64,000 nucleotides of DNA, taken from assembly GCA_003566885.1 (NCBI GenBank), contig PXBO01000010.1, forward strand, positions 1 through 64,000, read 5' to 3'. Shown here piece after piece: positions 3,905 through 46,742 of the stretch. Numbering within the stretch: position 1 is the stretch's first letter; every line of letters begins with the position of its first letter. Source of the stretch: Opitutia bacterium (GTDB taxonomy: Bacteria > Verrucomicrobiota > Verrucomicrobiia > Opitutales > T3Sed10-336). The position numbers and the translations under genes were made by a program. Under the pieces are notes generated by a model, which saw only the letters and a program-made list of their open reading frames with translations, had not been told where the DNA came from and searched no databases.

Positions 3905-4200
3905 GCCTTGGAGTGCAGTGTTACGCCACCATTTTCTCCCGCAGCCACCTGTCGTAACTGCCTACCTGCGATAGTTCTGTCCGAGTAGAGCGACTGGTTC
4001 CCCGACCGTCCTCCCACAGACCCGGACGGGGAGACGGTCCGGCCCTCGAAAACGCAGGCAGGCCGATGTGGAACATACCGAATGGGAATCAACCTTTGCT
4101 GTCGGGATCTTTGGTATCGGCGAAGCCGGGTTGGATTCAACGTTGCCGGGATCCGATGAAATTATGGATTTGGGGTTTTTCATTTCCGGAAGATTCGGTG

Positions 4201-5169
4201 ATGGTTTCTCAGGAACTTATGGCAACCGGGCAAAAAAATCTCGCGCGTTGGTATCGGGAGGTGGCACAGCACCTGGCGGCGGGATTGCCGTTGACACGAG
4301 CTGTGGTTAACGCGGGAGGGCCGGCGCGGAAAGAGCGGAAACGAATGGAACAGGAACTTACCGCCGGGCGTTCCTGGAGCGACGTCTTGAATTCGGCGCG
4401 GTGGCTGCCGCCGGAGGACCGGGCGTTGCTGGTCGCGGCGGCCGAAAGCGGACGTTTGGTCGAGGTCCTGATGCCGCTGGCCAGAAAGCGGGCGTTGCTG
4501 GCGGAACAGAATCGCCGTGCGGTCGGGGCCTGCGTTTACCCGGTGGCGGTACTGCATTTCGGGGCTCTGGCGGTGCCGCTCCGGTTCCTGGTGATGGGCG
4601 AAACGGAAACCTACCTCGCCCAGGCGGGCACGGTGCTGATTCCGCTTTGGCTCGTCATCGGCGTCCTCGCATGGGGAGCCGGCGGCCGTCACGCCTGGCT
4701 GCAAATGCTGATGCGGATGGTTCCTTTCTTTCGCGCCTACAGCCGGCGGCGCGCCCTGGCGGATCTCGCCTTCACCCTGGAGGGCGGCGTGATCGCGGGT
4801 CAGTCGATCGTTCGCGCCTGGGAAAGCGCGGGAGCGGCCTCCGGTGACGGCCGCCTGCAACGCGCGGCCGACCGCATCGCCGCCGCCGCGCGGGAGGGCA
4901 ACGAACCCGGCGCGACCCTGTCGGATGAAAATGCGTTTCCGGATGACTTCGTCTCGCTCTATCTTACCGGGGAAAAGACCGGTCAACTCGACGAAAACCT
5001 GGGGCACCTGGCTCACCTGTACGGCGAACAAGCCTCGGACAGTCTGCGGGCCGCGTCGGCATTCTATCCCAAAATTCTGTTTCTGCTGGTCGCAGTTTGG
5101 GTCGCCTACACCGTATTGTCATTCTACGCCGGATACTTCGGACAGTTCGAAGAGTTGTTGCAGTTCTGA
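4201..5169 (+). CDS. Type II secretion system F family (GspF/PilC-like) protein
   Basis: ARWYREVAQHLAAGLPLTRAVVNAGG...; VSLYLTGEKTGQLDENLGHLAHLYGEQASDSLRAASAFYPKILFLLVAVWVAYTVLSFYAGYFGQFEEL; T2SSF architecture with C-terminal TM segments. Confidence 0.75.
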   Translation: MVSQELMATGQKNLARWYREVAQHLAAGLPLTRAVVNAGGPARKERKRMEQELTAGRSWSDVLNSARWLPPEDRALLVAAAESGRLVEVLMPLARKRALLAEQNRRAVGACVYPVAVLHFGALAVPLRFLVMGETETYLAQAGTVLIPLWLVIGVLAWGAGGRHAWLQMLMRMVPFFRAYSRRRALADLAFTLEGGVIAGQSIVRAWESAGAASGDGRLQRAADRIAAAAREGNEPGATLSDENAFPDDFVSLYLTGEKTGQLDENLGHLAHLYGEQASDSLRAASAFYPKILFLLVAVWVAYTVLSFYAGYFGQFEELLQF

Positions 5170-7132: not shown

Positions 7133-7378
7133 GGTGACCCCAGTCTAATCCCAATGAATGGATCAGGGAAACTAAAAACCAGGGAAACCGGCGGCCGGTG
7201 GATGCCTGTCGGGCCTAGCTGCTCTGCAACTCCGGTTTGGCGGGAGACAACCACTGAAACCGGCGCCGCTTCATAATCTTTCCGAATAAGCCCTATGCCA
7301 AATCCTGATCAACGCAGGCTTGCCGTGACGTGATCCGCACTCTAGAAACGGGCCATAACGCAACCGGAGGTTTTTACT

Positions 7379-7942
7379 ATGCGATATCGCGTTTTCATAC
7401 TTTTCACCGCAATGGCCGGGCTGGTTCTTGGTTCGGTCGCGCCCGCAATGGGGGCTTACGATATGTTTCTCAAGATCGACGGGATCGACGGGGAGTCGAC
7501 GGACAAAGACCATCAGGGATGGATCGAGGTGGAGTCGTTCTCCTGGGGCATGAGCGTCAGCGTCTCCTCCATTGGGACGGGAGGCGGAGCCGGGAAGGCC
7601 AACTTCCTCGAGCTTTCCATCGACAAGTTTCTCGACAAAGCTTCACCGCGGTTGATGCTGACCGGCGCGGAGGGTCGGCACCTTCCCGCGGTACACCTGG
7701 TGCTTCGCACGCAAGGGGAAACCCGTCACAGCTTCTTCGAGATCGAGCTCAAGAACGTATTTGTGACCAGTCTCGGCATCGAAGGCCAGGCCGGGGAACC
7801 GGTACCCACGGAAACCCTTTCGCTGAATTACGAGGAAATCAAAGTGACCTACACCCCGCAACGCGCCGATGGCGGAGCCGGGGATCCGGTTTCCGCCGGG
7901 TGGAACATCGCCGAAAACCGGCGGGTTGACACCGAGTCGTGA
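7379..7942 (+). CDS. Hcp-like (type VI tube protein family) protein with N-terminal signal peptide
   Basis: MRYRVFILFTAMAGLVLGSVAPAMGAYDMFLKIDGIDGESTDKDHQGWIEVESFSWGMSVSV...; Hcp-like core after a Sec signal sequence. Confidence 0.75.
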   Translation: MRYRVFILFTAMAGLVLGSVAPAMGAYDMFLKIDGIDGESTDKDHQGWIEVESFSWGMSVSVSSIGTGGGAGKANFLELSIDKFLDKASPRLMLTGAEGRHLPAVHLVLRTQGETRHSFFEIELKNVFVTSLGIEGQAGEPVPTETLSLNYEEIKVTYTPQRADGGAGDPVSAGWNIAENRRVDTES

Positions 7943-8766
7943 CAAGGAGCGCCGTGCGCTTGAAATCTTTGATTTTTATTGCTTTGGCGCTGACGGTTGC
8001 CGGTCCGGCGGCAACAGCGGCATACGATGCGTATCTGAAAATCGATGGCGTCGATGGCGGTTCGGAAGGCAAAGCGCGTGGAGGGTGGATCGACCTGCTC
8101 TCGGTCGCGCAGGGGATGAGCCGGCCGATGGGCGACAGTGGCGGGGGTGGCGCCTCCAAACCGGAGTTTTATGATCTGCTGATGGTCAAACCGGTGGATA
8201 AAGCCACTCCCCTTCTGATGCTGGCAGGCGCCGAGGGAAGACATTTTCCGGAAGCGACGCTCGATCTCGTGCGAGCGGATGGCTCCGCCGCCCGATTTTA
8301 CCGGATACGGCTCCAGGATGCCGTCATCACCCAAACCGAGGTCATGGGAAACGTCTTCCATGAGCAGCCCCTGGAAACCGTCGCACTGACCTACGGGTAC
8401 CTGGAATGGTCCTACGTGGAATTCGATCTTGAAGGGAAAGAGGTCGCGGAGCACCTCGCCTACTGGGATCTCCTGCAAAACCAGGGCGGCATTTCGGTCA
8501 TTCCCGCAAACGGCGGGCCCCCGCCCGACCCGCCGGACGGTTTTCGGCACCGGGTCGATTTCGGCGTCTCCACCGAAACCGGCACCGGCACGCTGAGCTG
8601 GAACAGCAAAAGCGGCAAAACCTACGGCGTCTACTACAGTCCCGACCTGAACGAACCGTTCGACACCCTGGTGAAGACCGTACCCTCCGAAGGCGACGAC
8701 ACGACCTCCACCACCGTCGAACTGTCCGGTTCGCGAGGGTTTTATATCATCCGGGAGATCGATTGA
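7939..8766 (+). CDS. Second Hcp-like exported protein with C-terminal extension
   Basis: SLIFIALALTVAGPAATAAYDAYLKIDGVDGGSEGKARGGWIDLLSVAQGM...; C-terminal GTGTLSWNSKSGKTYGVYYSPDLNEPFDTL resembles small beta-sandwich tails common in verrucomicrobial secreted proteins. GTG start overlaps the previous stop; exact start uncertain. Confidence 0.7.
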   Translation: MTRSAVRLKSLIFIALALTVAGPAATAAYDAYLKIDGVDGGSEGKARGGWIDLLSVAQGMSRPMGDSGGGGASKPEFYDLLMVKPVDKATPLLMLAGAEGRHFPEATLDLVRADGSAARFYRIRLQDAVITQTEVMGNVFHEQPLETVALTYGYLEWSYVEFDLEGKEVAEHLAYWDLLQNQGGISVIPANGGPPPDPPDGFRHRVDFGVSTETGTGTLSWNSKSGKTYGVYYSPDLNEPFDTLVKTVPSEGDDTTSTTVELSGSRGFYIIREID

Positions 8767-21866: not shown

Positions 21867-22256
21867 ATGTCAAAATCAGATCTTCCCCGTCCGACCGACT
21901 CCGAATTGTCCATTCTCCGCGTCCTCTGGCGTCGGGGGCCGAGCACCGTCCGGGAGGTGCTGGAAGAGATGGCTCCCGGCACCGGGTACACCACGGTTCT
22001 CAAATTCCTCCAGATCATGGCGGAGAAGGGGCTCGTCCGGCGCGATGAATCCCGCCGCACCCACGTTTATCGCCCGGCGGCCAGCCGGGAGGAGACCCAG
22101 CGAAAGCTGACCGGCGACCTGATCAAGCGCGCCTTCAATGGCTCCGCGAAGAGCCTCGTCCTCCAGGCCCTCTCCGGCACGAAAGCCTCGGCCGAGGACC
22201 TGGCGGAAATCCGCCGCCTACTCGACGAGATCGAAACAAAAAAGGCCAAACGATGA
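21867..22256 (+). CDS. BlaI/MecI/CopY family repressor
   Basis: LPRPTDSELSILRVLWRRGPSTVREVLEEMAPGTGYTTVLKFLQIMAEKGLVRRDESRRTHVYRPAASREETQRKLTGDLIKRAFNGSAKSLVLQAL. Confidence 0.95.
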   Translation: MSKSDLPRPTDSELSILRVLWRRGPSTVREVLEEMAPGTGYTTVLKFLQIMAEKGLVRRDESRRTHVYRPAASREETQRKLTGDLIKRAFNGSAKSLVLQALSGTKASAEDLAEIRRLLDEIETKKAKR

Positions 22257-24937
22257 ACGCCGCCTCCACGCTCCTCGCCCAACCCTCCATCCAAACCCTC
22301 GGCTGGACCCTTCTTCATTTCGTTTGGCAGGGGGCCCTGATCGCGGCGGTTTTTGCGCTCGTCCGCTTCATCCTCAGAGGCCGTTCGGCCAACTCCCGCT
22401 ACCTCGCGGGGTGCGTCACCCTATTGGCACTCCTCGCCGCGCCCGTCGTCACCTTCTCCGTACTGAACCCGGGTCCGGCAGCGCCCCATACCGCTATCGC
22501 TCACGCCGAGCCACCCCCCACGTCCTTGGCCGCAAATCCGCCTGCCCCAACGGCGTCTCCCGATACCTCGACCGCCGCTTCGGCACCGGCGACGTTCGAA
22601 CCTCCACCTTCAGCAAAAACGGTCTCACCGCTTCCCGTCCGAATCGAACCCTGGCTGCCGTGGCTCGTGGCGGCGTGGTTCCTGGGCGTGTTCGTTCTAT
22701 CGGTACGACTTCTCCTCGGTTGGATCCATGTCCGGCGTCTCAGGACTCGCGGCAACGAGCGCCTGAGTGAAACCTGGCAGCGACGCTTTGAACAACTCTG
22801 CCGCCGCATGGCGGTTTCGCGACCGGTCCGGCTGCTGAGATCGAGCCTCGTGGAAGTGCCCGCCGTCATCGGCTGTCTGCGGCCGATCGTTCTGGTGCCG
22901 GGCAGTGCGCTAACCGGCCTCACCTCCGCCCAGCTCGAATCCGTGCTGGCCCACGAGCTTGCGCACGTTCGGCGTCACGACTACCTGGTCAATCTCCTCC
23001 AGAACGTCATCGAGACCCTGCTCTTCTACCACCCGGCCGTGTGGTGGGTGTCCCGTCGGGTGCGTGAAGAGCGTGAAAACTGCTGCGACGACCTTGCCGT
23101 AGCCGTTTCGAACGAACCCGTTGTCTATGCCGAGGCCCTGGCAAGCCTCGAAGAGCTGCGCCGTTTTACGCCCCAACTTGCCCTGGGTGCCGGGGGCTCG
23201 GATCTGCTTTCCCGCGTGCGCCGCATCCTCGGTCTGCCCGATGGAACCCGCGGGTTTCGTCCGCCGCTCGCCGGTTTCATCGCCCTGCTCGGAGTCACCG
23301 TCGTATTGACCTCCATCGCCCTTTACACGGCGCTTCAGCGCGAGCCCGTTTATTATGGAAAACCGGTCAGCACCTGGATCGGCATGCTGGGCACGAGCTA
23401 CCATCAGGCCGCGCACGACGTGCTGACGACCGCGGGCGACGAGGTATTGCCCTACCTCGAAAAAGCAATCGTCGCCCGGGAGTCCTGGTTTTCACAGAAA
23501 TACCGCTCAACACACGAAGTGCTGCCCGGGCTCCTGGCCGGGATAGTCCCGGAACCCAGAAGCCGAAATTTCTTCCAAGTCCGCGCCGCCACCGCCGAAC
23601 TGATTCCGGAAGTAACCTCCGATCCCGACCTCGCCCTTCCAATCCTGATGCGGCCGTTGGACGAAGCTGATACGGCCAGTCGAGAGGCGGTACGCGCTTT
23701 GGGGGAATTCCGCAGTAGCGCCGCGCCCGCCGTTCCCAAGCTGATCTCCCTTCTAAACGATCCCGATCACCGGATGCGAAGCAGTGTCGCGGCAACACTT
23801 CACCGGATCGGACCAGCGGCTAGGGACGCGGGCCCGGTGCTTGCAGCCTTGATGGAGGACGAGGAACGTCGGGTACGCATCTTCTCGGCTCAAACTCTCG
23901 GAGCGATCGGTGCGCATCCCGATGTAGCGATTCCCGCTTTGCTCGAAGCCGCACAATCCGACGATTCCGAGCTGCGCTTCCAGGCCATACAATCGCTCGG
24001 CCGATACGGAGCCAACGCAGAGCCAGCCGTACCCGAGATCGCCGAAGCTTTGGCTGACCCGGATCCGTCTGTCCGGCGATCCGTACTGGGGGCATTGGCG
24101 GGAATCGGGTCCTTTCCCGGCGACCTCGAATCAACCATCCAGGAATTGGCGACTCACGCCGAAAGTCCATCCGAGCGCGGTTGGGCCACCCTCCTGCTCT
24201 GGAGAACCACCCCGGACGATCCCGAGCTCACGGACGAACTTGTCACTTATCTGCGCTGGTCGGACCCTCCGACAGTGGGCAGTGGTATGCTCTACCGTCT
24301 GAGCCTGATGGATCCGGTCCCCCGGCACCTCGCGCCAATCCTTCGTGAAATCGTCGACGAAGGCGATTATTTCCCGTCCCGCCGATTCGCCGCGCAAATC
24401 CTGGTTAATCTCGATCCGGAGTACGGGTCGCTCGCGCACTATTTGGAACCGACAATCGCCCCTGCAAGGTCCGGCGAACTCGATCCGGCGCGCCAACGAA
24501 TCATCGAAATCTTCGCCCGCAACCATTTCGACTCGGAACGAATCGTACCGGAATTGTTGAATCTCCTCGATGACAAAGCGCTTGCCGCCGAAGCGGTCCA
24601 TGGCTTGATCGAAACCGAGCCAATGAACCGGCCGGGAACCCACCTGCTCTCTCTCCTGTCGGACAGAAGGCCTCACGTCCAGGTTGCGGCGCTCGATGTG
24701 CTCTCGACTACAGGATACATTCCCCGTGCGGGTCTCGCCGTGCTTCCCGATCTCTTACTGCATCCCGAGGATTCCATTCGCGTTCCGGCGGCCAGGCACA
24801 CGATCACTTACGTCGGATCGTATCCCTCCGACATTCCGCCCACACTCCGCCCCGCACTCGAGGCCGCTGCTTCCGACCCGAACGAAGAATTCCGCACCCT
24901 TGCCGCCCGCGCGCTGGACCGTCTCGAAGCAGAGTGA
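22253..24937 (+). CDS. M56 (BlaR1-like) membrane metallopeptidase with C-terminal HEAT repeats
   Basis: LESVLAHELAHVRRHDYLVNLLQNVIETLLFYHPAVWWVSRRVREERENCCDD (HEXXH) after TM segments; C-terminal repeats such as AVPKLISLLNDPDHRMRSSVAATLHRIGPAARDAGPVLAALMEDEERRVRIFSAQTLGAIG. Confidence 0.9.
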   Translation: MNAASTLLAQPSIQTLGWTLLHFVWQGALIAAVFALVRFILRGRSANSRYLAGCVTLLALLAAPVVTFSVLNPGPAAPHTAIAHAEPPPTSLAANPPAPTASPDTSTAASAPATFEPPPSAKTVSPLPVRIEPWLPWLVAAWFLGVFVLSVRLLLGWIHVRRLRTRGNERLSETWQRRFEQLCRRMAVSRPVRLLRSSLVEVPAVIGCLRPIVLVPGSALTGLTSAQLESVLAHELAHVRRHDYLVNLLQNVIETLLFYHPAVWWVSRRVREERENCCDDLAVAVSNEPVVYAEALASLEELRRFTPQLALGAGGSDLLSRVRRILGLPDGTRGFRPPLAGFIALLGVTVVLTSIALYTALQREPVYYGKPVSTWIGMLGTSYHQAAHDVLTTAGDEVLPYLEKAIVARESWFSQKYRSTHEVLPGLLAGIVPEPRSRNFFQVRAATAELIPEVTSDPDLALPILMRPLDEADTASREAVRALGEFRSSAAPAVPKLISLLNDPDHRMRSSVAATLHRIGPAARDAGPVLAALMEDEERRVRIFSAQTLGAIGAHPDVAIPALLEAAQSDDSELRFQAIQSLGRYGANAEPAVPEIAEALADPDPSVRRSVLGALAGIGSFPGDLESTIQELATHAESPSERGWATLLLWRTTPDDPELTDELVTYLRWSDPPTVGSGMLYRLSLMDPVPRHLAPILREIVDEGDYFPSRRFAAQILVNLDPEYGSLAHYLEPTIAPARSGELDPARQRIIEIFARNHFDSERIVPELLNLLDDKALAAEAVHGLIETEPMNRPGTHLLSLLSDRRPHVQVAALDVLSTTGYIPRAGLAVLPDLLLHPEDSIRVPAARHTITYVGSYPSDIPPTLRPALEAAASDPNEEFRTLAARALDRLEAE

Positions 24938-45724: not shown

Positions 45725-46636
45725 TCAGCTCTTCCGCCGGCGACGGATCCAGACCGTTCCGGCGAGAACCAGCGCTCCGAAGAGCATCGCGTAAGTCGAA
45801 GGCTCGGGAACCGCGATAAAATCACCCGGGTCGAGTGCGCCTTCAGTGAAACGGACGTTGTCGACATTTCCGGTCATCCAATCGGCAAGACCTCCATCCC
45901 ACCAGCCGCGTCCGACCGTCCAGACCGCTCCGGTAGTGGCCAAGGCATTGTCAGGACTGTCCGCGACGTCAAAATCCTGCGACCCAACGAGCTGATAATC
46001 AAAATTGTTATCGGTCACGTAAAAACTGACCGTGGTACCATCGCTGGTGGCGGCAAGCCCGGTCCAGCGGTTGTCCTGAGGGACAATCCCTCCATCTGCC
46101 GAATCAATGATAATCCGCTCGCCGGTGACGGTGGCGAAGTCGAGCCGATAGGTGGAACCGGTGCCAAACGTCTGCAGGTAGAAATTCGCTTTGGGCTCAC
46201 CTTCGAAAGAAGACTCATCGCGTCCCACCAATGTCTGGTTCGGCGAGGCGACATTGTCGAGCCGAACCGCAAGCTCGATGGTCCATGAGGTCGGACTCCA
46301 GTTGTTCAAGGCGTTGTTGTTCTCATGCCCGGTGAAGGCGTCCTGGCCAACGGCACGCATGCTCAAGCCGGTGCCGAAGACGCCACCACCCGCTTGGGAG
46401 AACGAAGGCCCGGCATCCTCGTTCCATCCGGACAGCCAGAAATCATTACCGGACTGGTCCGGAACATCCGGGGTGGCACCACCGTCTTCTCCCGGAGAAA
46501 ACGGCTCGCCGGGCGTGCCCTGGTTAAAGTTCCAATGCGCAAACGTTTGCGCTCCGGCCGAGGCAGCCGCCAACAATGTAGCCATTCCCAAAACGGAAAC
46601 GCCAAAATATCGAGCGATAGTTCCTGTTGTTTTCAT
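45725..46636 (-). CDS. LamG-like secreted protein with PEP-CTERM sorting signal
   Basis: Signal peptide MKTTGTIARYFGVSVLGMATLLAAASAGAQ; LamG-like body; C-terminal VPEPSTYAMLFGALVLAGTVWIRRRRKS. Confidence 0.9.
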   Translation of the reverse strand: MKTTGTIARYFGVSVLGMATLLAAASAGAQTFAHWNFNQGTPGEPFSPGEDGGATPDVPDQSGNDFWLSGWNEDAGPSFSQAGGGVFGTGLSMRAVGQDAFTGHENNNALNNWSPTSWTIELAVRLDNVASPNQTLVGRDESSFEGEPKANFYLQTFGTGSTYRLDFATVTGERIIIDSADGGIVPQDNRWTGLAATSDGTTVSFYVTDNNFDYQLVGSQDFDVADSPDNALATTGAVWTVGRGWWDGGLADWMTGNVDNVRFTEGALDPGDFIAVPEPSTYAMLFGALVLAGTVWIRRRRKS

Positions 46637-46742
46637 AAAGACCAAAAGAGGTTGAAAGCGGTGTCCGTCGGCGAAAAAAAAACGGACGGGCAACAATAAG
46701 CAGGAGTGTGAGGGCGTTGAATAAAAATGGCAAGAACAAAAC

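What the first reader, a model, noticed from the sequence alone, without database searches (positions are those of the whole stretch)
7379..8766. Tandem exported Hcp-like proteins without any type VI secretion genes
Seen: two adjacent, overlapping ORFs each begin with a Sec-type signal peptide and continue directly into an Hcp-like core (AYD[MA][FY]LKIDG[IV]DG...GW[IL][ED][VL].S...GM). No TssB/C, ClpV, VgrG or other T6SS component is recognisable in the 64 kb. Canonical Hcp is cytoplasmic and lacks a signal peptide. Inference: these Hcp-fold proteins may have been repurposed as periplasmic or extracellular ring/tube-forming proteins. The second carries an extra C-terminal beta-sandwich-like tail, suggesting a homotypic pair with divided roles (e.g. 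structural unit versus cap/anchor). This is my best candidate for an under-described system in the window.
Basis: partly seen in the sequence, partly recalled or inferred. Interest (0 to 1): 0.7.

Follow-up and report, generated by a model that had tools for sequence, protein, structure and literature searches.

The report
Exported Hcp pair without T6SS
Two neighbouring genes make copies of the ring protein that normally forms the inner tube of a bacterial molecular spear, but here both carry export tags, the spear machinery is missing, and the same two-gene unit recurs across the phylum, so the ring protein seems to have been reused outside the cytoplasm.

Summary
Genes A (7379-7942) and B (7939/7954-8766) both encode a signal peptide followed directly by a full Hcp domain (Pfam T6SS_HCP, E 3.6e-35 and 6.4e-28; predicted folds match Hcp1 1y12). 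The own genome (68% complete) has no other Hcp and no TssB, TssC or VgrG.

Among 390 genomes of the phylum, 33 have Hcp. All 13 that also have TssC carry leaderless Hcp; 19 of the 20 without TssC carry exported Hcp (Fisher p 2.4e-8). Sixteen of those have the tandem unit, and two database loci add to it. In 20 of 20 complete pairs the order is short A, then B = Hcp plus a C-terminal extension. No other shared gene was seen.

B's tail is usually a generic C-terminal domain found at the very end of many large proteins of these bacteria, often after TSP3-like repeats. In two genomes B instead carries a lectin, or Ig-like and cadherin domains.

Trees reject a single origin of the exported forms, which suggests repeated recruitment.

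Best reading: a Sec-exported, non-T6SS Hcp pair, probably a surface ring or stack in which B anchors or displays modules. Export and absence of T6SS are well supported; ring assembly and surface role are inferred.

The parts
7366..7370 (+). Shine-Dalgarno-like GGAGG upstream of gene A
   Evidence: read directly
7379..7942 (+). gene A: exported Hcp, 187 aa, Hcp domain only
   Evidence: PF05638 E 3.6e-35; NCBIfam TIGR03344 above cut-off; PDB 1y12 E 6.9e-38; AlphaFold pLDDT 86, 1y12 TMt 0.93
7379..7453 (+). signal peptide of A (25 codons, cleavage after AMG by inspection)
   Evidence: sequence; rule-based call
7939..8766 (+). gene B: exported Hcp with C-terminal extension, 275 aa from GTG 7939, or 270 aa from GTG 7954 (more likely)
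   Evidence: PF05638 E 6.4e-28; AlphaFold pLDDT 83, 1y12 TMt 0.91 over the Hcp part
7944..7949 (+). AAGGAG, likely ribosome-binding site of gene B if GTG 7954 is the start
   Evidence: read directly
7954..8019 (+). signal peptide of B (from GTG 7954; cleavage after ATA by inspection)
   Evidence: sequence; rule-based call
8020..8490 (+). Hcp domain of B (approximate limits)
8536..8763 (+). C-terminal beta domain of B, a generic end-of-protein domain in this phylum
   Evidence: profile A3; structure

Best explanation
A and B are a self-contained two-gene unit that uses the T6SS tube protein Hcp outside the cytoplasm and independently of any T6SS. Shown: both are encoded with Sec-type leaders followed directly by a complete Hcp fold; the unit recurs as a tandem in many genomes of the phylum that lack T6SS; the first protein is always Hcp alone and the second always Hcp plus a C-terminal extension. 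Inferred: after export A assembles into Hcp-type hexameric rings or short stacks; B enters or terminates the same assembly through its own Hcp domain, and its C-terminal module tethers the assembly to the cell surface or displays binding modules (a generic C-terminal domain in most, a legume-type lectin or Ig/cadherin-like domains in some). The likely product is a multivalent surface ring or stack for adhesion, binding or scaffolding. Rough likelihoods: exported and not T6SS 0.93; A forms rings 0.6; surface display or anchoring role for B 0.4-0.5.
For: Domain and fold. TssC-negative Hcp genomes carry leaders in 19 of 20, TssC-positive in 0 of 13 (Fisher 2.4e-8). TssB is absent from all 20 TssC-negative Hcp genomes and from the genomes of L034, L071 and L106, with positive controls ringing; VgrG is absent from 13 of the 14 tested. 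Two carriers, G254 and G322, are single-contig genomes. Order A-then-B in 20 of 20 pairs, same strand, gaps of -4 to 101 nt. No shared neighbours in the flanks inspected. B tails: TSP3, Lectin_legB, Big_9 and cadherin by Pfam; generic C-terminal domain. Window A keeps 69% and B 44% of the 52 positions that are at least 85% conserved in 77 canonical Hcps.
Against: No experiment, and no multimer prediction was possible. B and many A relatives are diverged (median retention of canonical positions 0.52 for A, 0.31 for B), so the ring interface may be lost in some. One TssC-negative genome (G237) has a leaderless tandem. The surface location rests on leaders plus tail domains only; a periplasmic location is open.
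Confidence: 0.5

Rival explanations
1. Exported but not assembled: the Hcp fold is used as a stable monomeric or small-oligomer beta scaffold, and A and B are ordinary secreted binding proteins.
For: Many A and B relatives have lost most positions conserved in canonical Hcp; B carries ordinary extracellular modules.
Against: Window A is about 45% identical to Hcp1 over its full mature length; a strict tandem of two Hcps is unexpected if they do not interact.
Confidence: 0.25
2. Part of an unrecognised secretion or surface device whose other parts lie elsewhere in the genome, with A as tube and B as an exported end piece.
For: Tube-like fold and paired subunits; B tails vary as tips do.
Against: No conserved neighbour; tube proteins of contractile machines assemble in the cytoplasm, whereas these are exported. 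Co-occurrence across whole genomes was not tested.
Confidence: 0.1
3. Envelope decoys against incoming T6SS: exported Hcp subunits meet, cap or co-assemble with tubes fired by neighbours.
For: Carriers lack T6SS themselves; several exported Hcps stay close to proteobacterial or planctomycete Hcps in the tree, as repeated capture would give.
Against: No direct evidence; diverged copies could hardly co-assemble with foreign tubes; the tail domains are not explained.
Confidence: 0.07
4. Orphan T6SS Hcp genes (relics or spare tube subunits) whose leaders are annotation artefacts.
For: Orphan hcp genes away from T6SS clusters are known (PMC3942780).
Against: Leaders occur in 19 of 20 TssC-negative and 0 of 13 TssC-positive genomes; ribosome-binding sites precede the leaders here; two single-contig carriers have no TssB, TssC or VgrG.
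Confidence: 0.03

Closest known systems
Hcp/TssD, T6SS inner-tube protein (PF05638, TIGR03344; 1y12, 3eaa, 4tv4, 7fcf)
   Same: Same fold; window A about 45% identical to P. aeruginosa Hcp1 over its full mature length
   Different: Sec leader, tandem with an extended copy, no T6SS in the genome
Hcp-ET, evolved Hcps with fused toxin domains (Ma et al. 2017, as cited in PMC8262886)
   Same: Hcp domain followed by a C-terminal extension, as in B
   Different: B has a leader; its tails are anchoring or adhesive-type domains rather than toxins; no T6SS
Orphan hcp genes outside T6SS clusters (e.g. Pantoea ananatis, PMC3942780)
   Same: Hcp gene away from T6SS genes
   Different: Those are described in T6SS-positive strains; here there is no T6SS and the proteins are exported
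Generic C-terminal domains of secreted proteins (PEP-CTERM, T9SS-type CTDs) and TSP3_bac repeats
   Same: B usually ends in a domain shared by many large proteins of related genomes, often after TSP3-like repeats
   Different: No PEP-CTERM motif in B; the domain matched no Pfam model above its cut-off and its sorting role is untested

Membership tests
Hcp (PF05638) protein family | Significant full-length match to the Hcp profile | tested here: met
   (A above and B just below the NCBIfam cut-off, 57.3 vs 58.9 bits)
Hcp (PF05638) protein family | Hcp fold | tested here: met
Hcp (PF05638) protein family | Hexameric ring assembly | not testable with these tools
   no multimer prediction offered
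Type VI secretion system tube (TssD) | Leaderless, cytoplasmic subunit | tested here: not met
Type VI secretion system tube (TssD) | Sheath genes TssB/TssC in the genome | tested here: not met
   (own genome 67.6% complete; relatives up to single-contig)
Type VI secretion system tube (TssD) | VgrG spike in the genome | tested here: not met
   (absent from own genome; one weak hit in a short frame in G120)
Hcp-ET effector | C-terminal toxin domain | tested here: not met
   no toxin domain in window B or the seven other long B proteins scanned
PEP-CTERM / exosortase substrate | C-terminal PEP-CTERM motif | tested here: not met
   no match in B, although another window protein has one

The most novel reading that the evidence does not exclude
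The T6SS tube protein has been taken repeatedly and independently out of its machine, given Sec leaders and tandem duplication, and turned into an extracytoplasmic ring or stack system with a displayed partner, in a phylum that mostly lacks T6SS.
Probability: 0.45. Interest if true: 0.75.

Novelty: new variant of a known kind. Interest (0 to 1): 0.58.

Why it matters
Hcp is treated as a marker of the T6SS, and automatic annotation would name these genes T6SS tube proteins (window A passes the NCBIfam cut-off). If exported Hcps form rings on their own, they are a T6SS-free Hcp nanoring system and show that the tube subunit can be domesticated; it also means that calling a T6SS from Hcp alone is wrong in this phylum.

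Tried and rejected
Conserved neighbours: none in the flanks inspected. A single origin of exported Hcps: rejected by AU test with all rows (p 0.0007) and again without the longest branches (p 0.0004); clades of A and of B are not recovered either, but deep branches are weak and the bootstrap had not settled, so the number of origins is not claimed. Spread beyond the phylum: among the Planctomycetota and Actinomycetota hits inspected, four planctomycete loci (L236, L240, L248, L253) and one actinobacterial locus (L106) have leaders, all single genes without the tandem. Promoter and terminator scans gave nothing above chance. Literature: ten searches found no description of signal-peptide-bearing Hcps, but the library is partial. 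Searches returned errors and gave no data. L020's A has the leader-like stretch but no ATG/GTG/TTG start for it; it was counted as exported because its leader resembles that of L139. L137 B and L154 A were missed by the rule but read as leaders by eye.

Full report
Observation. The window has two adjacent plus-strand genes. A (7379-7942) reads MRYRVFILFTAMAGLVLGSVAPAMG then AYDMFLKIDG; B (ORF 7939-8766) reads, from the likely GTG start at 7954, a leader ending GPAATA then AYDAYLKIDG. A has GGAGG and B AAGGAG shortly before the start. Both match Pfam T6SS_HCP over its whole length (E 3.6e-35 and 6.4e-28), match solved Hcp structures by sequence and are 38% identical to each other. AlphaFold models of both give the Hcp fold (1y12: TM by target 0.93 for A and 0.91 for the Hcp part of B). 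The alignments used for folding held other Hcps; no templates were used.

Genome context. The own genome (2.5 Mb, 67.6% complete) has no other Hcp, no TssC, no TssB and no VgrG. Neighbours are a zinc-type dehydrogenase, a short-chain dehydrogenase, a beta-eliminating lyase and a T2SS-F-like protein; none of them was seen beside the other copies whose flanks were read.

Comparison across the phylum. PF05638 was found in 33 of 390 genomes and TssC in 15, 13 of which also have Hcp. Reading the starts of these Hcps gave a clean split. In the TssC-positive genomes the Hcp begins at the core (MAFDTY..., MALDAF...). In 19 of 20 TssC-negative genomes it begins with a signal peptide; the exception is G237, a leaderless tandem. 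Fisher exact p is 2.4e-8; relatedness of genomes is not corrected for. Carriers include the single-contig genomes G254 and G322. Sixteen of the 19 carry the tandem unit, some twice (G243, G254, G322), and three carry a single exported Hcp. A GTDB scan added two more pairs, L034 (Opitutia MAG, closest to the window: A 49% identical, similar B tail) and L071 (Verrucomicrobiales MAG), and one single, L106 (Actinomycetota MAG); the other Hcps of that scan are leaderless. The three genomes behind these loci have no TssC or TssB. The named relatives suggest that the window is from Verrucomicrobiota; this is an inference.

Architecture. In 20 of 20 complete pairs the first gene is Hcp alone and the second is Hcp plus about 74-796 extra residues; the intergenic distance is -4 to 101 nt. 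B extensions hold TSP3-like repeats (one Pfam match above and three below its cut-off), a legume lectin and SdrD_B domain (L071), or Big_9 and cadherin domains (G243). The common final ~70-residue domain (alignment A3) is not specific to B: it is found 8, 18 and 35 times in G120, G322 and G250, and in most cases inspected it ends 1-6 residues from the stop of a large protein. In G000 it was found only in B. It is best read as a generic C-terminal domain, possibly for sorting or anchoring; that role is untested.

History. A tree of Hcp domains scatters exported forms among canonical ones. Examples are L071 A with planctomycete and proteobacterial Hcps (starred), and L135 A and B inside the canonical part of the tree. 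One clade for all exported Hcps is rejected (p-AU 0.0007; 0.0004 after dropping long branches). Several recruitments from T6SS Hcps are the natural reading, but gene transfer and model error on long branches limit this.

Mechanism. Shown: leaders, fold, absence of T6SS, recurrent ordered pair. Established knowledge: Hcp of T6SS forms stacked hexameric rings (PMC8262886). Inferred: mature A makes rings; B joins through its Hcp domain and tethers or displays its C-terminal modules. Window A keeps 69% and B 44% of 52 strongly conserved canonical positions, so A is the better candidate for ring formation. Purpose (adhesion, binding, scaffolding) is a guess from the module types.

Verdict. A real, recurrent use of the Hcp fold for which no description was found in the searched library. 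The family is known and the setting is new, so it is rated a new variant of a known kind.

Noticed in passing
45728-46696 (-): Laminin_G_3 protein with a PEP-CTERM motif, suggesting that the genome has an exosortase-type sorting system; B does not carry this motif.
   Followed up: no
L106:1278-1823: An Actinomycetota MAG carries a single signal-peptide-bearing Hcp (PF05638 E 5.3e-36) with no TssC or TssB found in its genome.
   Followed up: partly
L236, L240, L248, L253: Four planctomycete loci have single Hcps with apparent signal peptides; TssC was not checked in those genomes.
   Followed up: no
L156:1068-2054: G237 has a leaderless tandem of two diverged Hcps without TssC or TssB in the genome; unexplained.
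   Followed up: no
L025:8514-11085: The T6SS cluster of G080 holds four diverged leaderless Hcps in a row beside TssC.
   Followed up: no
4066-5169 (+): T2SS-F-like protein (PF00482, E 2.8e-23) about 2 kb upstream of the pair; not seen beside other pairs.
   Followed up: partly
22253-24937 (+): BlaR1-type M56 peptidase joined to a long HEAT-repeat region, preceded by a small ORF at 21867-22256 that looks like a BlaI-type regulator by its sequence.
   Followed up: no
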